From: a virus
DNA length: 23,320 nt
Virus record (IMG/VR): IMGVR_UViG_3300045119_000111
Coordinates: 1-23,320 of that record
Strand: one strand, 5' to 3'
Shown here: piece by piece, positions 1-20,240 of the stretch
Layout of the letters: every line of letters starts with the position of its first letter
How positions within the stretch are numbered: position 1 is the stretch's first letter
Notes under the pieces: generated by a model
What the model was told of the DNA's origin: nothing
The model's database searches: none
The model's input: only the letters and a program-made list of their open reading frames with translations
Position numbers and translations under genes: made by a program

Positions 1-861
1 ACGCTGCGCCGCCTCGGCGATCTTCACCACGTCGTGGTGCCCCTGGATGATGGCGGCCCGGATGTGGCCGCTGTCCCAGTTGCCCGGCTGAATGTACTTG
101 TCGGCCTGCATGAGCACCTTGCCCGCAAGCTCCTTGTCGACCGTCGAGGGGTCGCCGCCTTCGCCGAGTAGCTCGACCAGCGTGCTGTCGGTGACGTGAC
201 CGGCACGCACCTGCTGCTCTTGCTGCACTGCATTTTGCAGCGGGACCTGCGACTGCTGGATGAGGCGCTGCGCTTCGGCGACCGCTTGCTGCTTCACCTG
301 CTCGGCGTACTGCTTGAACTGCACGCCGTCGATGAGATCTTCCTCGGTGAGGTTGTCCCATGCGTTCGGCGCCGGAGCAGCGGGAGCTGCAACACCCGGC
401 GACTGGAGCACCTGCTGTTCGGTGAGGCGGCCCTCCATGAAGGCACGCACTTGCGCCGGGTCCTTGCCGAGGGCGGTGAGGCCCTGCGCAACGATGAGGC
501 GCACTCCGGCTTCGGTGGTGAGGCCCTTGCGGATCGCATTGGCCTCATCGACTGCTTCCTTGCCGCTGACGTGGCGACCATCGGCAGCGACGTATGCGTA
601 CTGCTCGAACGGATCGCCGCCCGGCGGCGCCTGCGGTGCCCCAGGCGGCGTTGCGGGCGTCGCCGGAGCGACGGGCGTTGCGGGCGGCACGGGCGTGCCA
701 GCCCACGTTGCTTGCTGCCGCTCGGCCAGCGTCGCCGGAGCGACGATCGGCTCCTTCTCGACCGGCGGTGCGCCAGCGGCGAGAGCGTCGGCGTCGAAGT
801 TGACTGCGGCGAGAGCAGCGCCAGCCTCTTCGACTGACTGGGGCTCGTCTTCAGTGCCCAT
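1..861 (-). CDS. Scaffold-like protein next to portal (3' end cut by window edge)
   Basis: The minus frame is open from an ATG at 861 to the window edge, giving 287 codons with no stop. An in-frame TAG lies 18 nt upstream of the ATG and a GAGG sits about 8 nt before it, which fixes the start. The protein begins MGTEDEPQSVEE and has an acidic N-terminus. A Pro/Ala/Thr-rich linker (about residues 50-80) follows, then a Gln/Glu/Ala-rich part (about 180-225) that looks helical. It lies directly downstream of the portal gene, where tailed phages usually encode the capsid scaffold or protease before the major capsid protein. The scaffold role is inferred from position and composition only; no catalytic motif is visible. 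The capsid gene should lie just beyond the left edge. Confidence 0.72.
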   Translation of the reverse strand, partial: MGTEDEPQSVEEAGAALAAVNFDADALAAGAPPVEKEPIVAPATLAERQQATWAGTPVPPATPVAPATPATPPGAPQAPPGGDPFEQYAYVAADGRHVSGKEAVDEANAIRKGLTTEAGVRLIVAQGLTALGKDPAQVRAFMEGRLTEQQVLQSPGVAAPAAPAPNAWDNLTEEDLIDGVQFKQYAEQVKQQAVAEAQRLIQQSQVPLQNAVQQEQQVRAGHVTDSTLVELLGEGGDPSTVDKELAGKVLMQADKYIQPGNWDSGHIRAAIIQGHHDVVKIAEAAQR

Positions 862-6406: not shown

Positions 6407-8812
6407 CTAAGTCTTGATGACGAAGTTGACTGCCACGCTGGGCGGGATGGGGGCCTGGGCGCTGTCGGTGCTGCCGGTGACGTTGCTGGCCGACCCGGAC
6501 CATCCAAGTGCCGACACGCTACCGCCCGCCGTGTAGACGGCACCGCCGACTGATGGCGCAACGCTGTAGCTCGGGGTGACGGCCTTCGGGCCTGCGGAAC
6601 CACCGACGTCGGTACCGGCCGACACCGAGTTGGCATCGGAGGCCTGCGTGCCGGTGGCGTGTGTCGTAGCTGTCCATGCGCCTGTGGCAACACCACGTTC
6701 ACGCACGACGTTCGTGGTGGTGATGACGTGGATCTTGGCGAAACCGGAACCGGCGCCGTTACCCGAGAAGTCGTCAACGCCGAGGGACATACCGCCGACG
6801 CCGAGGGCGTTGAACGTACCGGCGCTGAACGTCGGTGCGGTGACGCTACCGCCCGGCGTGTACGCACCACCAGTGACTGTTCCTGTGGCCGTCGTGGACA
6901 GCGTACCGTCGGTGGCGTGACCACCGTGTTGGTGGGTTGCTGCTGCGGTCACCGTGCCAAGGTCGCCGCTTGCGCCGTACGGGAAGTGGTGTCGCATGTC
7001 GGGCACGTTGAAGTGCGTACCGTCGGCAGAGCCCCACGTCGTGCCGATACGTGCGAACAGCGCAGCGTATTGCGTGCGCAGGTACGACGTGCCGTCGCAC
7101 AGCAGCCAGCCGTCATCGACCGTCGTGTGCGCAACCATCTTCATGTCGCCGGGCGCAAAGCCTGCAGCGGGCGGGCCGGGTGGACCGGGCATACCGTCGG
7201 CGCCATCTTCGCCGGGTGGTCCCGGCGGTCCCTGCGGACCTGGAATGGTGCTGGCTGCGCCGGTAGCTCCCGGCAGGCCATCGAGCCCGTCGGCGCCGTC
7301 GGCACCGTCCATGCCCGGCGGTCCTTGCGGGCCGGGGATCGTGCTCGCTGCGCCGGTTGCGCCGGTTGCGCCGGTCGCTCCGGTGTCGCCCTTCATGCCG
7401 GGCGGGCCGGGTGCACCGTCCTCGCCGTCTTGGCCCGGCGCTCCTGTGAGGCCGTCACGCCCGATGATGCCGTTCGTTCCGTTCGTGCCGGGCACGCCTT
7501 GCGGGCCGGGCGGGCCGTCGTCGCCGTCGACACCGGGCGGGCCTTGCGGGCCGGTGAACGCACCGCTGTAGATGTAGCTCGTGAGCAGCGTGTCGCTGTC
7601 CTCAGTGATGATGCGGTTGTTCGTGCCAAGGTCGCAGAAGGCGCCCTCGCTCGCCTCGTGCTTACCACTTACGAGGAACAGGTTGTGCGCAGATGTGGCG
7701 TCAAGGTTGAGTGCGCACGCCGAGGCGCTGAGGATGCGTGTGCGGATCTGCGAGTTGGTGAGCCCGATGCACTCGATGCGTGCGATGGAGTGGATGCTGC
7801 CCTCAATGCCGTTGCCTCGCAGTACGACGTGGTCGCCGAAGTTGGCACCGGCCTGTTGGAAGTCGAGCTGTGCCGGGCCGGTGATGTCGACGCCCGCACC
7901 GCCGCCGTTGTCGAAGCTGCCCTTGATGATCTTGGTAGCGGTACCAGCCCATGTCAGTGCACCGAACGGTCCCTCGACACGTCCGTAGACTCCTGCGGCG
8001 AGCGAAAGTCCTCCGACGTTGCTGCCAAGGTTCACGATGTCGACCCGTGTCGTCGGGTTCACGCTGCCATTCGAGGCGATGATGTTGCAGTTGAGATCAC
8101 CGAACATGGTGATGCCATTGCTCGCTGTGACCGTGCCGGTCATTACACCGCCGAGCCAGATGACCCCGACGAGCGACGTCGTCTGCGTGTAGCCAGCGCC
8201 GATGCAGTTGTAGAAGTTGTAGTTGACGCCGACACCTTGGCTCGACTGCAGGATCAGGTTGGCCTGGAACTGCGAGTCGTACATCGAGCAGGTGCGCCCG
8301 CTCGGTGCGAGCACATGCGAGTTGCAGAAGCACTCACGCATAATGAGAGTGCCCTGGTCGACAACGTCGCCGTCGATAGACGGGCTGAAGTACACGCCCT
8401 CTGCGTACACCGGCTGAGCGAGCGTGCACGAGATGCCGCCCTTGGTGTCCCACCCGAGCGACGTGCTCGGGTCCATGCCGCTGCCGAGCAGCACGAGCGG
8501 GCCGTGCCCGGCGATGCTCGGCGCTGACGGCTCGATGATCTGTGCGTTGATGCGCTGGCGCACACCGACCACCATCGTCTTCGTGGTCGGCCAGCTCTCG
8601 TTGGCGACCAGCTCGGTGAGGTTGATGTACTCGTGCAGGCCGGGGTTCGACGCCGGGAGATCCGGGTCGATGACGCAGTCGTAGATCGTGACGCCGGGCG
8701 AGATGATGCTGGCCAGATAGGCGAAATCCTGCTCGATCTGGTAGCGCTGTTCGGTCGTCAGCCCCTGGATGTACGGGAAGGGGACCTGATAGAGCGGCTT
8801 GCCGGAGGCCAT
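6407..8812 (-). CDS. Collagen-like tail fibre with C-terminal tail-collar domain
   Basis: An 801-residue host-contact fibre. Residues 1-45 are a likely virion-attachment segment. Residues 60-420 are repetitive, Gly/Asn-rich and beta-strand-like, as in right-handed beta-helix fibres. Residues 421-549 are about 43 near-continuous Gly-X-Y triplets (GPQGPPG, GATGATGAT), a trimerising collagen-like rod. A phage tail-collar-like domain follows (about 555-612: WLLCDGTSY, then FNVPDMRHHFPYG). The end is a Gly/Ser/Thr/Ala-rich segment closing with PPSVAVNFVIKT, the usual ending of collar fibres. Transcribed with its neighbours in the late operon, 14 nt after the preceding stop. Tail fibre is well supported; the receptor cannot be inferred. 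Confidence 0.9.
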   Translation of the reverse strand: MASGKPLYQVPFPYIQGLTTEQRYQIEQDFAYLASIISPGVTIYDCVIDPDLPASNPGLHEYINLTELVANESWPTTKTMVVGVRQRINAQIIEPSAPSIAGHGPLVLLGSGMDPSTSLGWDTKGGISCTLAQPVYAEGVYFSPSIDGDVVDQGTLIMRECFCNSHVLAPSGRTCSMYDSQFQANLILQSSQGVGVNYNFYNCIGAGYTQTTSLVGVIWLGGVMTGTVTASNGITMFGDLNCNIIASNGSVNPTTRVDIVNLGSNVGGLSLAAGVYGRVEGPFGALTWAGTATKIIKGSFDNGGGAGVDITGPAQLDFQQAGANFGDHVVLRGNGIEGSIHSIARIECIGLTNSQIRTRILSASACALNLDATSAHNLFLVSGKHEASEGAFCDLGTNNRIITEDSDTLLTSYIYSGAFTGPQGPPGVDGDDGPPGPQGVPGTNGTNGIIGRDGLTGAPGQDGEDGAPGPPGMKGDTGATGATGATGAASTIPGPQGPPGMDGADGADGLDGLPGATGAASTIPGPQGPPGPPGEDGADGMPGPPGPPAAGFAPGDMKMVAHTTVDDGWLLCDGTSYLRTQYAALFARIGTTWGSADGTHFNVPDMRHHFPYGASGDLGTVTAAATHQHGGHATDGTLSTTATGTVTGGAYTPGGSVTAPTFSAGTFNALGVGGMSLGVDDFSGNGAGSGFAKIHVITTTNVVRERGVATGAWTATTHATGTQASDANSVSAGTDVGGSAGPKAVTPSYSVAPSVGGAVYTAGGSVSALGWSGSASNVTGSTDSAQAPIPPSVAVNFVIKT
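7166..7552 (-). repeat. Gly-X-Y coding repeats within the tail fibre
   Basis: This stretch encodes the collagen-like rod of the fibre. It is internally repetitive at DNA level: the block encoding GAASTIPGPQGPPG occurs twice, at about residues 487-500 and 518-531. GGC/GGT-rich triplets make it a likely site of slippage and length variation. Confidence 0.85.
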
Positions 8813-15969: not shown

Positions 15970-15998
15970 TTGAGTCGAGCGCCTGGAGTGGCGATACT
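15970..15998 (+). promoter_or_regulatory. Candidate rightward promoter for the small-gene array
   Basis: TTGAGT (15970-15975), 17 nt, GATACT (15993-15998). Spacing is canonical and each box matches 4 of 6 consensus bases. The transcript would begin near 16005 and have about 430 nt of leader containing the inverted repeat at 16288-16413 before the first array gene. Confidence 0.42.
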
Positions 15999-16287
15999 CC
16001 TTTTACGAGCACACCGGCCCCGCCACCACGAGGGGGACGTGCAAAAGCTCGGAAGCATCGCACCAAGCCTGCGTGCTCGGTAAATCGCCAGGGTGACCGT
16101 CGGGAAGACGACGGCTGCACAATCCCTGTCGGGGCCGGAGCCACCACCAGCGTCTTGGGAGTGCGGGGGACATCCTCGTGAACAGCGGCGCACGCAAACC
16201 TCCTAGCGGTGCACAGGCTTAGTTGGGGCCAAGCTCACGACGGCGCAGCAATGCGACCGACACAGGGCCGTCTCAACGGTGCCAGTG

Positions 16288-16413
16288 CACTGCGCAGAGG
16301 CTAGATAGCACCTCTCCCGGCTGCTCGGGAATAGTGGGGCGCAGGCCAGCATCCTGCGGCATGTATAAGACCCAGCGGGCATCGACACCCAGCTACCTAG
16401 CCTCTGCGCAGTG
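16288..16413 (+). ncRNA. Candidate structured leader bounded by a 22-nt inverted repeat
   Basis: Arms at 16288-16309 and 16392-16413 pair at 21 of 22 positions, the outer 17 without a mismatch (CACTGCGCAGAGGCTAG with its complement). Inside are a TCCCG/CGGGA hairpin (16315-16330) and a CGCAGG/CCTGCG hairpin (16340-16358), followed by TGTATAAG at 16362-16369, which could be a -10 box. The element ends 23 nt before the first array gene and just upstream of its AGGAGG. It could be a regulatory RNA, a cruciform protein site or a promoter module. The RNA call is tentative. Confidence 0.45.
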
Positions 16414-16436
16414 AAGACACCAACCCAGGAGGAATC

Positions 16437-16676
16437 ATGTCCCGTAAAGACTTCGAGGCGCTCGCATCTAACCTGCGGTCGCAGCGACCCGCAGCGTGGA
16501 ACTACCGCAACACTGACGCCAATGCGGCCGAGGTGTGGGCGTGTGAAACGTGGCGGCGCTGCGTGCTCGCAGTGAGCGACGCTTGTCGCCTCTCCAACCC
16601 TCGTTTCAACGGCACGCTGTTTCAGGCGGCCTGCGGTTACGAGCCCACTAACGAACCGGCCTTCAAGGTCGTTTAA
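16437..16676 (+). CDS. Array gene A: small conserved-type phage protein
   Basis: A 79-residue protein starting MSRKDFEALASNLRSQRP and ending with NPRFNGTLFQAACGYEP. The pattern of a charged N-terminal helix, an aliphatic/Cys middle helix (WRRCVLAVSDACRLS) and a final NPxF...F..ACG motif is one I recognise from small unassigned proteins of high-GC phages and actinobacterial genomes. No function is known to me. AGGAGG lies 6 nt before the ATG. It is the first gene of the rightward array, preceded by a large inverted repeat and followed 1 nt after its TAA by a stem-loop. Confidence 0.8.
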   Translation: MSRKDFEALASNLRSQRPAAWNYRNTDANAAEVWACETWRRCVLAVSDACRLSNPRFNGTLFQAACGYEPTNEPAFKVV

Positions 16677-16677
16677 C

Positions 16678-16710
16678 CCAAAAGCCCGGCCGCTTGGCCG
16701 GGCCTTTTGG
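16678..16710 (+). terminator. Array hairpin 1
   Basis: Stem CCAAAAG plus CCCGGCC closes a GCTT loop with GGCCGGG, a bulged C, and CTTTTGG: 14 bp with a short T-run in the 3' arm. It starts 2 nt after gene A and resembles an intrinsic terminator or attenuator. Confidence 0.65.
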
Positions 16711-16711
16711 C

Positions 16712-16784
16712 GTGAGGCGGGCAGCAGGTGGCGCAAGCCACGCAAGCTGTATAACGGCACGTCCGCAGATGCTGCCCGCCTCAC
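16712..16784 (+). ncRNA. Candidate structured element bounded by a perfect 15-nt inverted repeat
   Basis: The arms GTGAGGCGGGCAGCA (16712-16726) and its exact complement (16770-16784) enclose a GTGGC-GCAA-GCCAC hairpin with a GNRA tetraloop (16728-16741). TATAAC follows at 16750-16755. It begins 1 nt after the preceding hairpin and ends 21 nt before gene B. The layout parallels the element before gene A. RNA function is inferred from the GNRA loop and pairing. Confidence 0.45.
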
Positions 16785-16805
16785 CTAACCCACCAGGAGG
16801 AAACA

Positions 16806-17054
16806 ATGGACCACTCATCCGCCCGCCACTCGGCGCCCGGCTCGACGTACCGAATCACCCCGCCGAGGATCTGCTTCTGCGGCAAGACGGTGCTGAAGCC
16901 CGGCGTAACGTGCCCTCGGAACTGCGAGAGCGACGAGGCAAAGGCACTGCGCCGTGCGGAACGTCGCACGGCGATCATCGACCGGGCCGCCCGTAACGAC
17001 GAGGCGGCACGCCAGGCACGCATCGCTGACAAGCGGGGCGTGATCGGCGGCTAA
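16806..17054 (+). CDS. Array gene B: small zinc-ribbon-like protein
   Basis: An 82-residue protein with four N-terminal cysteines, C23, C25, C36 and C40 (ICFCGKTVLKPGVTCPRNC). They could bind one zinc. A long Arg/Ala/Glu-rich helix follows (about 43-76) and then a short RGVIGG tail. AGGAGG lies 6 nt before the ATG. The basic helix fits nucleic-acid or ribosome binding, but there is no family assignment. It is flanked by stem-loops on both sides, like its neighbours. Confidence 0.75.
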   Translation: MDHSSARHSAPGSTYRITPPRICFCGKTVLKPGVTCPRNCESDEAKALRRAERRTAIIDRAARNDEAARQARIADKRGVIGG

Positions 17055-17060
17055 CGCAAC

Positions 17061-17095
17061 CCAACAACCCGTGCCGCTTGGCACGGGCTTGTTGG
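17061..17095 (+). terminator. Array hairpin 2
   Basis: The stem CCAACAA plus CCCGTGCC pairs across a GCTT loop with GGCACGGG, a bulged C, and TTGTTGG: 15 bp. It keeps the loop, the bulged C and the terminal CC/GG of hairpin 1 with a different lower-stem sequence. It is followed by CG and TGTAAG at 17098-17103. Confidence 0.65.
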
Positions 17096-17102
17096 CGTGT
17101 AA

Positions 17103-17425
17103 GGCAATGCGATATGCACACCGGCCCCGGTGAGGGGCCACGGTGCAGCACCGCCCACATGGGAACGCTGCGGCCAACCACCTCTAACGCCCAACCTGTA
17201 TCGCAGGGTTGCTCGGGCACCACGGGTCAAGGCCCCGGCCAGGAACCTAAATCACGGGCACCGCTGCACATGCCGCTGATCCCGGCACAGGTGAGCGAAA
17301 CGGAAGCACGTACGTGGGGACCAGGAACGAAGCCCTTACGGGGCAGCCGGTGTGCGGTGTGCACATCAACAGCACCGGCTCCTGACTGCCAACCACGGCG
17401 TGGCCGGTGCGCATATCGCAATGCC
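17103..17425 (+). ncRNA. Candidate large structured RNA closed by a 24-nt inverted repeat
   Basis: No convincing gene occupies this 399-nt gap. Its ends, 17103-17126 and 17402-17425, pair at 22 of 24 positions. Between them lie several hairpins: GGCCCC/GGGGCC (17123-17139), CGGTG-cag-CACCG (17141-17153), TGCCG/CGGCA (17271-17287), GCCC-ttac-GGGGC (17332-17344 area) and AGCCGGTG/CACCGGCT (17345-17380). The palindrome CACGTACGTG lies at 17307-17316. Termini pairing around a hairpin-rich core is typical of ornate non-coding RNAs. I see no tRNA, tmRNA, RNase P or group I intron signatures. It lies 28 nt before gene C. An origin-like or protein-binding DNA element is the alternative. Confidence 0.5.
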
Positions 17426-17453
17426 AAAACACCCAGTAAACACAGGAGGAATC

Positions 17454-17657
17454 ATGTACGTTCGTCCCAACTTCAAGACCAAGAAGGCCCTGAAGGAGGC
17501 CGTCGCCAACGGCGATCGTGTCGAGGTGTTCAGCCCCGGCCCGTTCCCCGCCAAGGCGAACGGCCGTGAGGCGATTGAGGGGCCGCACTACCCGGCGGCC
17601 CACACTTGGTACGCCAACGTCACCGTCGTTGACGGTGTGGTGACCAAGGTCGCCTAG
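17454..17657 (+). CDS. Array gene C: small conserved-type phage protein
   Basis: This protein has 67 residues from the ATG at 17454, with AGGAGG 5 nt upstream. It starts MYVRPNFKTKKALKEAVANG. The central VEVFSPGPF and the closing IEGPHYPAAHTWYANVTVVDG then KVA match a small protein pattern I know from many tailed phages (basic helix, PGPF turn, EGPHYP...H.WYA motif). No function is established to my knowledge. It follows the large folded region and is followed by array hairpin 3. Confidence 0.8.
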   Translation: MYVRPNFKTKKALKEAVANGDRVEVFSPGPFPAKANGREAIEGPHYPAAHTWYANVTVVDGVVTKVA

Positions 17658-17681
17658 AAGTCAGCCGGAATGGGTACCCGG

Positions 17682-17720
17682 CGCCACGAGCCCGCACCGC
17701 TTGGTGCGGGCTTGTCGGCG
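17682..17720 (+). terminator. Array hairpin 3
   Basis: The stem CGCC, ACGAG, CCCGCACC pairs over a GCTT loop with GGTGCGGG, CTTGT, a bulged C and GGCG. This is 17 bp with one G-U pair, followed directly by TGTAAG at 17721-17726. It begins 24 nt after gene C. Confidence 0.65.
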
Positions 17721-17748
17721 TGTAAGACCCAACACCTAGGAGGACATC

Positions 17749-18204
17749 ATGTCAGGCATCACCCTGGTTACTCATCCCACACCTCGTGTGCGTGATTACC
17801 TGTTGGCTGAGTCGGATGACCGGCTGCGTATCGACAGCAGGCGGCACGGTCGCTCGACCGTGTTCAGCCTGTCGCAAGCGCACGACGGGCACTACTTCTT
17901 GACGCCGCAGGCCACCGTGATCGCACTGCACCACATCGCCGAGCCGGGCCTCGAATACGAGGCGTCGGTCGGCGACGAGGTGCTCATCGACGGGTCGCTG
18001 TTCCGCATCTGCGAGGACAGGCCGCTCGACGGGCCGCACCTCGAACGAGTCTCCGACTCGTGGGGCGGGGCGATTGCGCACGTCGAGTGTGGCCAGTGCA
18101 GTGCCCTGTACGAGCAGGCGATCTCGGTCGCTCGTGTCACGGGCAGCGTCGAGGCAAGCGTCGAGTCGGGCGGCCACAAGGCCACGGCGACTCGCATCCA
18201 GTAG
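17749..18204 (+). CDS. Array gene D: hypothetical protein
   Basis: This 151-residue protein is the largest of the array, starting MSGITLVTHPTPRVRDYLLA. AGGAGG lies 6 nt before the ATG. It is strand-rich and acidic, with segments GHYFLTPQATVIALHHI and VGDEVLIDGSLFRICEDRPL that read as a beta-barrel-like fold. A CGQC pair (HVECGQCSALYEQA) lies near residues 121-126. No family is recognised. Only 28 nt separate hairpin 3 from its start, so this cassette shows the minimal unit: hairpin, TGTAAG, Shine-Dalgarno, gene. Confidence 0.78.
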   Translation: MSGITLVTHPTPRVRDYLLAESDDRLRIDSRRHGRSTVFSLSQAHDGHYFLTPQATVIALHHIAEPGLEYEASVGDEVLIDGSLFRICEDRPLDGPHLERVSDSWGGAIAHVECGQCSALYEQAISVARVTGSVEASVESGGHKATATRIQ

Positions 18205-18208
18205 CGTT

Positions 18209-18247
18209 ACCCCTCAACCCGCACCGCTTGGTGCGGGTTGTTTGGGT
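18209..18247 (+). terminator. Array hairpin 4
   Basis: CAACCCGCACC pairs perfectly with GGTGCGGGTTG over a GCTT loop. An outer ACCC/GGGT helix is separated by a small internal loop. TGTAAC follows at 18247-18252. It starts 5 nt after gene D. Confidence 0.65.
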
Positions 18248-18271
18248 GTAACAACAACCCAGGAGGTAGCA

Positions 18272-18607
18272 ATGAGCACATACGTCATCGGCTACGGGCT
18301 CCGCACCAACCAAGGTGTGGACCTCAACCAGAATGACCGCAACCTGTTCTTCAGCAAGCTCGTGCAGCTCATCGAGTCGATTGACGGCGAGATCTACTTC
18401 GCCGGAACCGGCACGGGCGTGTACGAGGGCGCCGAGGAACCGGCCGGTTCCATCACGTTCGCTGCAGAGGGTGACACGTTCACGCTCGACAGCCTGACAC
18501 GGGGCCTTGCCCCGATTGCGCTGGAGTTTGAGCAGGACTCCATCGCCGTTACTCGTGGCGGCACGCACTTCGTGTCGCAAGATGGCACCACGAGCAACGC
18601 CGACTAG
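18272..18607 (+). CDS. Array gene E: hypothetical protein
   Basis: The start is the ATG at 18272 with AGGAGG 5 nt upstream, giving 111 residues; the frame above it is the shadow of gene D. The sequence MSTYVIGYGLRTNQG continues through a helix (NLFFSKLVQLIESIDG) and several strands (EIYFAGTGTGVYEG, ITFAAEGDTFTLDSL). It has the look of a compact alpha/beta domain with an acidic surface. The function is unknown. It lies between hairpins 4 and 5. Confidence 0.78.
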   Translation: MSTYVIGYGLRTNQGVDLNQNDRNLFFSKLVQLIESIDGEIYFAGTGTGVYEGAEEPAGSITFAAEGDTFTLDSLTRGLAPIALEFEQDSIAVTRGGTHFVSQDGTTSNAD

Positions 18608-18614
18608 CCCTCGG

Positions 18615-18664
18615 CACGCAAAATCTCGAGCCCGCCCTGCATGAGGGGCGGGCTTGAGTGCGTG
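18615..18664 (+). terminator. Array hairpin 5
   Basis: CTCGAGCCCGCCC pairs with GGGCGGGCTTGAG (13 bp, one G-U) around a TGCATGAG loop. An outer CACGCA/TGCGTG helix is separated by an AAAT bulge on the 5' side. The loop departs from GCTT. A small palindrome GAGCAC-c-GTGCTC follows at 18666-18678. Confidence 0.6.
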
Positions 18665-18700
18665 GGAGCACCGTGCTCTCGCCCTACCCAGGAGGTAGCA

Positions 18701-18913
18701 ATGGACCACGACCAAGTCGGGCTTCGCCCGACCCGCAGGGTCACCGACCACGCCATCAGCATCCCCTCGGGCCTTGCGCTCGACCTGCTCGGCACGGCCA
18801 TCGACCTGTCAACCCTCGCCGTGCACATCCGAGAGATGTACCCGGCTGCGGCCCGCACACTCGAAAGCCACAGCGCCAAGCTGCGTGCGTTCGCAGAGGC
18901 GGCGAACCGCTAA
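18701..18913 (+). CDS. Array gene F: small hypothetical protein
   Basis: A 70-residue protein starting MDHDQVGLRPTRRVTDHAIS. Residues 20-66 form two probable helices (GLALDLLGTAIDLSTLAVHI, then RTLESHSAKLRAFAEAANR). It is mildly charged and has no cysteines. AGGAGG lies 6 nt before the ATG. No family or function can be assigned. It is bounded by hairpins 5 and 6. Confidence 0.72.
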   Translation: MDHDQVGLRPTRRVTDHAISIPSGLALDLLGTAIDLSTLAVHIREMYPAAARTLESHSAKLRAFAEAANR

Positions 18914-18914
18914 C

Positions 18915-18952
18915 CCGATCAGCCTCGGCGCTCCGGCGCCGGGGCTTTTCGG
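18915..18952 (+). terminator. Array hairpin 6
   Basis: CCTCGGCGC pairs with GCGCCGGGG over a TCCG loop with one G-U pair. The stem is extended below by AGCC/GGCT-type and CCGA/TCGG pairing with a small mismatch, and includes a TTTT run. It starts 2 nt after gene F. Confidence 0.6.
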
Positions 18953-18980
18953 CGTAGTAACCCAAGCTAAGGAGGCAGCA

Positions 18981-19286
18981 GTGCTGCTCGAATACAAGGT
19001 CCATCAGGACGATTACCACGGCGACATCCAAGTGCACGGTGTGCGCTCGATGCGGTTCGCCGTGCAGCAAGTGCAAGGTGAGATTGAGAACGGGTACGAC
19101 GTCACCAACGTCCAGCTCGACGGGGAACCGCTCGACCTCACGCCGTTCTGCACCCGTGTGTTGCACACTGGTGCGCCGTGTCCCAACCGTGCCGACAAGC
19201 GGTACCACCGGGACATCTGCATCACGCATCAGCACCAAGATGCGTACAACGAGGCCAGCGCCGCTGGCCGCTACCAAGGAGACTGA
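18981..19286 (+). CDS. Array gene G: hypothetical protein (GTG start)
   Basis: This protein has 101 residues from a GTG at 18981 with AAGGAGG 6 nt upstream. It starts with LLEYKVHQDDYHGDIQVHGV after the initiator. The first half is strand-rich. The second half has two cysteines and many histidines (FCTRVLHTGAPCPNRADKRYHRDICITHQHQD). C53, C64, C77 and the histidines could hold a metal. The function is unknown. The downstream gene H has its ribosome-binding site inside the end of this gene, so G and H are the one coupled pair in the array. Confidence 0.72.
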   Translation: MLLEYKVHQDDYHGDIQVHGVRSMRFAVQQVQGEIENGYDVTNVQLDGEPLDLTPFCTRVLHTGAPCPNRADKRYHRDICITHQHQDAYNEASAAGRYQGD

Positions 19287-19287
19287 A

Positions 19288-19422
19288 GTGGCACGCAAGC
19301 ACAACACCAAGCACCGCCGCTCCACGAGCAGCTACGGCGAGAAAGTACGGGAGGGCGGCGTGTCGAAGCTAGCTGACCCGATCCTGTCGGATGGGAGGCG
19401 AGCATCGGCTAAGCGCAGCTAA
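19288..19422 (+). CDS. Array gene H: small basic protein (GTG start)
   Basis: This protein has 44 residues from a GTG at 19288, with AAGGAG 6 nt upstream inside the end of gene G. The sequence ARKHNTKHRRSTSSYGEKVR after the initiator is strongly basic, and the end is DGRRASAKRS. Small basic phage proteins of this kind often bind nucleic acid. That is a compositional guess. The TAA is followed by a CCCGG/CCGGG hairpin near 19433-19451 and then array hairpin 7. Confidence 0.6.
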   Translation: MARKHNTKHRRSTSSYGEKVREGGVSKLADPILSDGRRASAKRS

Positions 19423-19468
19423 CCATCCATCGTCCCGGCCCGTATGACCGGGTGGTGCCCGGAAGCAA

Positions 19469-19505
19469 CCAGTGAGCCCGTCCCGTTGTGGGGCGGGCTT
19501 ATTGG
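19469..19505 (+). terminator. Array hairpin 7
   Basis: CCAGTGAGCCCGTCCC pairs along its whole length with GGGGCGGGCTTATTGG as RNA: 16 bp with three G-U pairs, loop GTTGT. It keeps the CC/GG base of hairpins 1 and 2 with yet another lower stem. TGTAAG follows at 19508-19513. Confidence 0.65.
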
Positions 19506-19543
19506 CGTGTAAGCTCCAATACCCAACGCCTCAGGAGGCAACC

Positions 19544-19900
19544 ATGCAAGGCATCACCAGAAGTCAGATCATCCCGGCCGTCAGCTCGAAGCAGGCGTTC
19601 GCCGAGATCGACGCACGCAATGCGGCGAAGGCGGCCCAGCACGAGCTGGTGCTCAGCCCGGCCGAGCTGCTGCACGACCACGACCCCGCCCGCTACCCGG
19701 CACCGCCGGAGCGCAAGGTGCGGATCGTGACCGAGACAGACGGCACGGGCGCCGAGATCCACGTCGAGGTGTTCCCCGACGGTCGGATCACGTTGTGGTC
19801 GAGCGACAACGTCCTGTGGTTCACGCCCAGCGACACGGTCGAGCTGATCGCAGCGTTGTGCGACGCACACGTCGAGTCGTCAGGCATAGTCAAGTCGTGA
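19544..19900 (+). CDS. Array gene I: hypothetical protein
   Basis: This 118-residue protein starts MQGITRSQIIPAVSSKQAF, with AGGAGG 6 nt before the ATG. The first 45 residues are helical and Ala-rich. Residues 58-95 are strands (RKVRIVTETDG, EIHVEVFPDGRITLW), followed by a C-terminal helix (DTVELIAALCDAHVES). The layout suggests a small alpha/beta domain. No family is recognised. Confidence 0.74.
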   Translation: MQGITRSQIIPAVSSKQAFAEIDARNAAKAAQHELVLSPAELLHDHDPARYPAPPERKVRIVTETDGTGAEIHVEVFPDGRITLWSSDNVLWFTPSDTVELIAALCDAHVESSGIVKS

Positions 19901-19930
19901 GCAGGCTGCCCGGCTAGGTGCAATGCGTGT

Positions 19931-20038
19931 CCTGTTTCCTTTCCGGGGCACGACAGGTGGCGGCGGATGCCACCTCGGGCGCTCCCACTTCGGTGGGGTA
20001 CTGCGAGCCAACGGGGCTCGCCCACAGGCCTAGGAGGC
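19931..20038 (+). ncRNA. Candidate structured leader with three hairpins before gene J
   Basis: Three stems lie in a row: AGGTGGC/GCCACCT (19955-19975), CCCAC-TTCG-GTGGG with a stable UUCG tetraloop (19984-19997), and CGAGCC/GGCTCG (20004-20020). GGGCG (19977-19981) can pair with CGCCC (20019-20023) around the last two, giving a junction. It replaces the usual array hairpin and abuts the AGGAGG of gene J, so control of gene J translation is possible. Confidence 0.42.
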
Positions 20039-20042
20039 CACA

Positions 20043-20240
20043 ATGCAGGTGACATGCCAGGACGGGCGCAAGCGCTCGTTGCACGGGACCAGCGGCAGCC
20101 AGTACGTCTACGCCAACGGGCGTCGGGTGTACGGCTACGTCATTCGAGCGTTCTCGGGTGACCGCTTCATTGCGTCGAGCACCGGCAAGTACCGGCACCT
20201 CGTCGCAGAGGCGCCGATCTCGGTCGGAGCACCCGCCTGA
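20043..20240 (+). CDS. Array gene J: small hypothetical protein
   Basis: A 65-residue basic protein starting MQVTCQDGRKRSLHGTSGSQ, rich in Tyr, Arg and Gly (YVYANGRRVYGYVIRAFSGDRF). It is probably a small beta-sheet protein. AGGAGG lies within TAGGAGGCCACA, 6 nt before the ATG. It is the last array gene and is followed by the strongest terminator of the window. No function is known. Confidence 0.7.
   Translation: MQVTCQDGRKRSLHGTSGSQYVYANGRRVYGYVIRAFSGDRFIASSTGKYRHLVAEAPISVGAPA

What the first reader, a model, noticed from the sequence alone, without database searches (positions are those of the whole stretch)
17103..17425. About 320-nt candidate large structured RNA closed by a 24-nt terminal inverted repeat
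A 399-nt gap in an otherwise compact genome has no credible gene. Its ends pair at 22 of 24 positions and enclose at least five separate hairpins, including an 8-bp AGCCGGTG stem and a 10-nt palindrome. Phages rarely keep such non-coding length. Terminal pairing around a hairpin-rich core is typical of ornate non-coding RNAs such as GOLLD and ROOL, but I see no match to a known class.
Basis: partly seen in the sequence, partly recalled or inferred. Interest (0 to 1): 0.8.

Follow-up and report, generated by a model that had tools for sequence, protein, structure and literature searches.

The report
Rare structured RNA in phage operon
A 323-base non-coding stretch of an uncultured actinobacterial virus most likely makes a folded RNA whose ends pair into a long stem; one other virus carries a relative with different end letters that still pair, but what the RNA does is not known.

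Summary
A 399-nt gap (17055-17453) contains a 323-nt element whose 24-nt ends pair at 22 positions; none of 300 shuffles matches this. Folding energy (z -3.4) is not distinctive, because much of this genome, coding parts included, scores -3 to -5. The strong evidence is comparative. A related phage (G027, terminase 62% identical) carries a 282-nt counterpart in its early leader with two collinear identical blocks (22 and 20 nt). Its closing helix has a different sequence but pairs over 20 of 22 positions. The block spacing (166 versus 156 nt) excludes one shared reading frame. There is no Rfam family and no match in 50,697 phage records, and pattern scans of IMG/VR and GTDB found only G027. 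The element lies in the early operon. That operon and four related phages carry other, mostly unrelated IR-closed non-coding leaders. Best reading: a structured RNA domain of the early transcript, probably excised or stabilised through its end stem, working like the abundant early-promoter RNAs of mycobacteriophages L5 and D29. GOLLD/ROOL membership is not supported, and internal covariation is not significant with two sequences. Function remains inference.

The parts
17103..17425 (+). Element D: candidate structured RNA, 323 nt
   Evidence: Inverted-repeat-closed; homologue L045:7767-8048:- in G027
17103..17126 (+). 5' arm of closing helix P1
   Evidence: 22 of 24 pairs with 17402-17425; homologous helix in G027 has unrelated sequence but pairs over 20 of 22 positions plus wobble
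17402..17425 (+). 3' arm of closing helix P1
17122..17143 (+). Conserved block 1, CGGCCCCGGTGAGGGGCCACGG, holding hairpin CCCC-GGUGA-GGGG (17125-17137)
   Evidence: 22 of 22 identical in G027; hairpin in the common structure
17262..17297 (+). Hairpin Pb (CGCU-g-CAC ... GUGAGCG, inner GCCG/CGGC)
   Evidence: Pairs in both sequences with different 5' strands, CGCUGCAC versus CGUUCGCC
17288..17307 (+). Conserved block 2, CAGGTGAGCGAAACGGAAGC
   Evidence: 20 of 20 identical in G027
17345..17380 (+). 9-bp hairpin AGCCGGUGU / GCACCGGCU
   Evidence: fold, (probability 0.92)
17068..17087 (+). Intergenic GC hairpin CCCGTGCC-GCTT-GGCACGGG just upstream, one of a family that follows several early genes
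   Evidence: repeat families D1/D6; also in G021
15970..15998 (+). Candidate early promoter TTGAGT-17-GATACT, also present in G021
   Evidence: consensus scan only; sequence
16208..16282 (+). Element A in the early leader, conserved in G021 (77% identity)
16286..16415 (+). Element B, closed by a 24-nt inverted repeat (22 paired), just before the first early gene
16712..16784 (+). Element C, 73 nt, closed by a perfect 15-nt inverted repeat
17454..17657 (+). Downstream gene (67 aa, unknown), found in at least 20 other viral contigs, none with a clear homologue of D

Best explanation
Element D is a structured RNA domain carried in the early polycistronic transcript (+ strand) of an actinobacterial tailed phage. 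Its long closing stem, about 24 nt of freely variable but paired sequence, brings the ends together around a core with two sequence-constrained blocks. The stem most likely lets a double-strand nuclease of the RNase III kind excise the core, or shields it from decay, giving a stable non-coding RNA in early infection. This would work like the abundant processed RNA made from the early promoter of L5 and D29. Shown: pairing ends, homologue, conserved blocks, re-written closing helix, non-coding nature, place in the early operon. Inferred: transcription, excision, stability, and a trans-acting role in host takeover.
For: Closing helix 0/300 in shuffles. Homologue in G027 with two collinear blocks, E 8e-6 and 1.5e-5; the two phages share only 15 exact matches of 17 nt or more in 23 kb, and two of them lie in this element. 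Closing helix of G027 paired with unrelated sequence. Hairpin Pb pairs in both with different 5' strands; its two G-U pairs in G027 favour the + strand. No shared reading frame. D is tied neither to one neighbour gene nor to one place: third intergenic gap in W, first leader in G027, which fits a trans-acting RNA. Related phages G021, G032 and G035 also have early leaders closed by long inverted repeats, 0-1 of 300 shuffles. Precedents: L5/D29/StarStuff make a ~500-nt abundant, stable, processed, toxic RNA from Pleft (PMC5712189); Rhodococcus phage WC1 has its most transcribed loci in non-coding gaps (PMC10986025).
Against: Only two members known. The inner common structure is not better than shuffles when the closing helix is kept (14/100). 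No expression data. The D29 right-end region shows no long inverted repeat (85/300 shuffles as good) and no sequence similarity was found in the phage collection, so the L5/D29 likeness is by place and kind only. The minus strand folds about as well. The closest relative by terminase, G021, lacks D.
Confidence: 0.45

Rival explanations
1. A cis-acting RNA that modifies RNA polymerase (like HK022 put) so that it reads through the hairpins between the early genes.
For: Early operon; GC-rich hairpins follow several early genes; put RNAs lie downstream of early promoters and act without protein (PMC9378689); in G027 the element is in the early leader.
Against: In the window it lies about 1.1 kb downstream of the candidate promoter, after two genes and two such hairpins. 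put is about 70 nt with two stem-loops. The intergenic hairpins lack a clear T run and terminator-like sites are at chance level. The hairpin family was not seen in the part of G027 that was read.
Confidence: 0.18
2. A cis-regulatory leader (riboswitch, translational switch or mRNA stabiliser) for the gene just downstream.
For: Ends 28 nt before the ATG of the next gene; other elements B and C also sit directly before genes.
Against: Downstream genes differ in the two phages; the 67-aa gene has at least 20 relatives without detectable D; complementarity of D to the phage Shine-Dalgarno sites is at chance level (128/200 shuffles).
Confidence: 0.17
3. A DNA element (origin, recombination or protein-binding site, or small mobile insertion with terminal inverted repeats), not an RNA.
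For: An inverted repeat is symmetric in DNA; D occupies different places in the two genomes, as an insertion might.
Against: G+C 66%, the same as the window, so no AT-rich unwinding region. The terminal repeats differ completely between the two copies, unlike transposon ends. No transposase gene was seen beside it. Block 2 sits in a hairpin with G-U pairs on the + strand in G027.
Confidence: 0.1
4. A new large ornate RNA class akin to GOLLD, ROOL or OLE (self-assembling RNA).
For: Phage-borne, closed by its ends, rich in hairpins.
Against: No Rfam match, small size, not near tRNAs, inner structure not established.
Confidence: 0.05

Closest known systems
Pleft early non-coding RNA of cluster A mycobacteriophages L5, D29 and StarStuff (PMC5712189)
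   Same: Actinobacterial tailed phage; non-coding RNA in the early transcript; several hundred nt; no long conserved ORF
   Different: No detectable sequence similarity; the D29 region has no long closing helix; D in the window is 1.1 kb from the candidate promoter; no expression data here
Non-coding RNAs nc_1 to nc_3 of Rhodococcus phage WC1 (PMC10986025)
   Same: Intergenic non-coding regions of an actinophage
   Different: Those were seen by RNA-seq; no sequence relation detected in the phage collection
put antitermination RNAs of HK022 (PMC9378689)
   Same: Structured RNA in phage early transcripts
   Different: About 70 nt, two stem-loops, enterobacterial host; activity untested here
GOLLD, ROOL and OLE RNAs (PMC12286853)
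   Same: Large structured RNAs of bacteria and phages
   Different: Much larger and with established covariation; no Rfam match here

Membership tests
GOLLD / ROOL / any Rfam family | Match to the Rfam covariance model | tested here: not met
   No match at gathering score; nothing below E 0.18 at permissive threshold, and that on the other strand to an unrelated family; none for G027
GOLLD / ROOL / any Rfam family | Near phage tRNA islands | tested here: not met
   No tRNA in the window
GOLLD / ROOL / any Rfam family | Elaborate inner structure supported by covariation | tested here: inconclusive
   Two sequences only; 14/100 shuffles as good with closing helix kept
Early-promoter non-coding RNA of actinophages (L5/D29 kind) | Non-coding stretch in the early transcript of an actinophage | tested here: met
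   Place in the + strand early operon; G027 copy between the divergent gene and the first early gene. That the region is transcribed early is inferred from gene order
Early-promoter non-coding RNA of actinophages (L5/D29 kind) | Abundant, stable, processed transcript | not testable with these tools
   No RNA data for this uncultured phage
Early-promoter non-coding RNA of actinophages (L5/D29 kind) | Sequence homology to the L5/D29 RNA | tested here: not met
   No match in 50,697 phage records, which hold D29
HK022 put RNA | About 70 nt, two stem-loops | tested here: not met
   323 nt with a closing helix
HK022 put RNA | Suppresses transcription terminators | not testable with these tools
   Needs a reporter assay

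The most novel reading that the evidence does not exclude
D is the first described member of a new phage RNA family: a modular, trans-acting RNA excised through a sequence-free closing stem from early transcripts, in a phage group that keeps several unrelated inverted-repeat-closed RNA domains in its early leaders.
Probability: 0.35. Interest if true: 0.72.

Novelty: new variant of a known kind. Interest (0 to 1): 0.5.

Why it matters
Early non-coding RNAs are among the most abundant transcripts of some actinophages, yet their function is unknown (PMC5712189, PMC10986025). A comparative example with a defined boundary (the closing helix) and two invariant blocks gives testable parts. The finding that several related phages keep different inverted-repeat-closed domains in the same early leader suggests a fast-changing layer of phage RNA that annotation misses.

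Tried and rejected
(1) Pattern scans for the conserved blocks in IMG/VR and in GTDB genomes: apart from G027, the hits lacked the other conserved features; most lie in coding genes and were taken as chance. (2) blastn against the phage collection: no homologue. (3) Searches of 42 related records with D from W and from G027: only G027. (4) Structure-aware alignment of W's D with the leaders of G021, G032, G035 and with W's own leader: no clear score above shuffles except G027 (G021 part weak, 2/25). (5) Anti-Shine-Dalgarno idea: leader complementarity to phage SD sites is at chance except in G027 (2/200) and weakly in G032 (11/200), so not built on. (6) Coding: rejected. (7) Folding energy as proof: rejected because coding windows score as low. 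(8) Origin of replication: no AT-rich part; RNA-based prophage origins exist in cluster A phages (PMC7157519), but no parABS was looked for beyond the window. (9) No covariance model was built: two sequences are too few and the length exceeds what could be calibrated.

Full report
WHAT IS THERE. The window is a whole IMG/VR record of 23,320 bases, about half of a tailed phage. Portal and terminase resemble PHROG families, and the nearest named relatives of the portal are Arthrobacter, Microbacterium and Cellulosimicrobium phages at under 25% identity. Late genes run on the minus strand (911 to about 15.8 kb) and a cluster of small early genes on the plus strand (16437-20240). Between the stop at 17054 and the ATG at 17454 lie 399 bases. 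The stretch 17103-17425 has ends that pair at 22 of 24 positions. The best inverted repeat in shuffled versions never reaches it (0/300).

FOLDING ENERGY IS NOT THE ARGUMENT. The element folds at -151.7 kcal/mol, z -3.4, and its complement at z -2.8. But 300-nt windows along the early operon, coding parts included, mostly score -2 to -5.6.

A HOMOLOGUE EXISTS. Relatives found through the terminase and portal were searched with the element. Record G027 (IMGVR_UViG_3300028800_000139; terminase 62%, portal 50% identical) holds a 282-nt counterpart at L045:7767-8048, minus strand, in the early leader between the divergent minus-strand gene and the first early gene. Two blocks are identical and collinear: CGGCCCCGGTGAGGGGCCACGG (22 nt) and CAGGTGAGCGAAACGGAAGC (20 nt). 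Window and G027 share only 15 exact matches of 17 nt or more; two lie here and, by position, the others listed are in coding regions. The closing helix of G027 (CACTGCTCAGAATCGCTCGG with CCGGGCGATTCTGAGCAGTG) has nothing in common with that of the window (GGCAATGCGATATGCACACCGGCC) outside the CGG that belongs to block 1, yet it pairs. That is the best sign that pairing, not sequence, is kept. Block 2 closes a hairpin in both, with different 5' strands (CGCUGCAC, CGUUCGCC); two G-U pairs in G027 would be A-C mismatches on the other strand, which favours the plus strand. The distance between block starts is 166 in one and 156 in the other, so no reading frame joins them, and the G027 element has stops in all six frames.

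LIMITS. With the blocks held and the rest shuffled, 3 of 100 controls score as well. With the closing helix also held, 14 of 100 do. So the closing helix is supported and the inner folds are not yet. Exact-pattern scans of IMG/VR and of GTDB genomes found no third member; records very near the window's own genome may be left out by those tools.

SURROUNDINGS. The element is one of several. Upstream lie element A (16208-16282, 77% identical in G021), element B (16286-16415, closed by 22 of 24 pairs) and element C (16712-16784, perfect 15-nt ends). A promoter-like TTGAGT-17-GATACT at 15970 is shared with G021, which would give a non-coding leader of about 430 nt before the first gene. G021, G027, G032 and G035 have leaders of roughly 300-680 nt with inverted repeats beyond chance (0 or 1 of 300 shuffles), mostly unrelated in sequence to each other. 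G021, nearest by terminase (91%), has A but not D. Leaders of this phage group thus carry a changing set of stem-closed domains.

MECHANISM. D is not tied to one downstream gene or one position, its ends pair with free choice of sequence, and its core holds invariant blocks. Pre-ribosomal RNAs show the same plan (established knowledge): variable processing stems cut by RNase III around a conserved core. The most likely reading is a stable RNA excised from, or protected within, the early transcript. The nearest functional precedent is the ~500-nt RNA from Pleft of L5/D29, which is abundant, stable, cut into 100-400-nt species and toxic to M. smegmatis (PMC5712189); Rhodococcus phage WC1 likewise transcribes non-coding gaps most highly (PMC10986025). 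Transcription, cutting and function of D are inferences. Antitermination of the put kind and control of the next gene are the main rivals.

VERDICT. A real structured element, new to Rfam and rare, most likely an early phage RNA. It is not shown to be a giant ornate RNA. Interest is moderate: the anatomy is well defined, but there are only two members and no expression data.

Noticed in passing
window 16208-16282 and L046 10078-10151 (G021 48077-48150, minus): Element A in the early leader is 77% identical between window and G021, with an inner hairpin whose stem differs on both sides (GGCC/GGCC versus CGC/GCG) between conserved TCACGACGG and ACCGACACAGG. No Rfam match.
   Followed up: partly
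window 16286-16415 and 16712-16784: Two further inverted-repeat-closed intergenic elements (22 of 24 and 15 of 15 paired), each just before an early gene.
   Followed up: partly
L100 5530-5917 (G032) and L098 7370-7667 (G035): Related phages share GGGTAC(TC/CT)GTTCCTCTCTCCTC in their early leader, opening a long hairpin (17-20 bp) whose 5' strand could also pair with Shine-Dalgarno sequences of the phage (weak in G032, 11/200 shuffles; chance in G035).
   Followed up: partly
G027 leader, L045 about 8130-8150 minus strand: CTCCTCCTCTTGTG is complementary over 11 nt to the phage's own Shine-Dalgarno context CACAAGAGGAG (2/200 shuffles as good).
   Followed up: partly
window 16685-16702, 17068-17087, 17691-17710, 18217-18236: A family of GC hairpins (CCCGnnCCGCTTGGnnCGGG) follows several early genes in W and G021, with only weak T runs.
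   Followed up: no
L109 about 481-588 minus strand (phage D29 47980-48087): The non-coding early region of mycobacteriophage D29 holds a tRNA-like stretch (GGGTAGC ... CCAGGTTCGATTCCTGGCTACCCA); ARAGORN calls no tRNA or tmRNA there.
   Followed up: partly
window 6407-8812: Collagen-like GPP/GXY repeats in a predicted tail-fibre-like protein on the minus strand.
   Followed up: no
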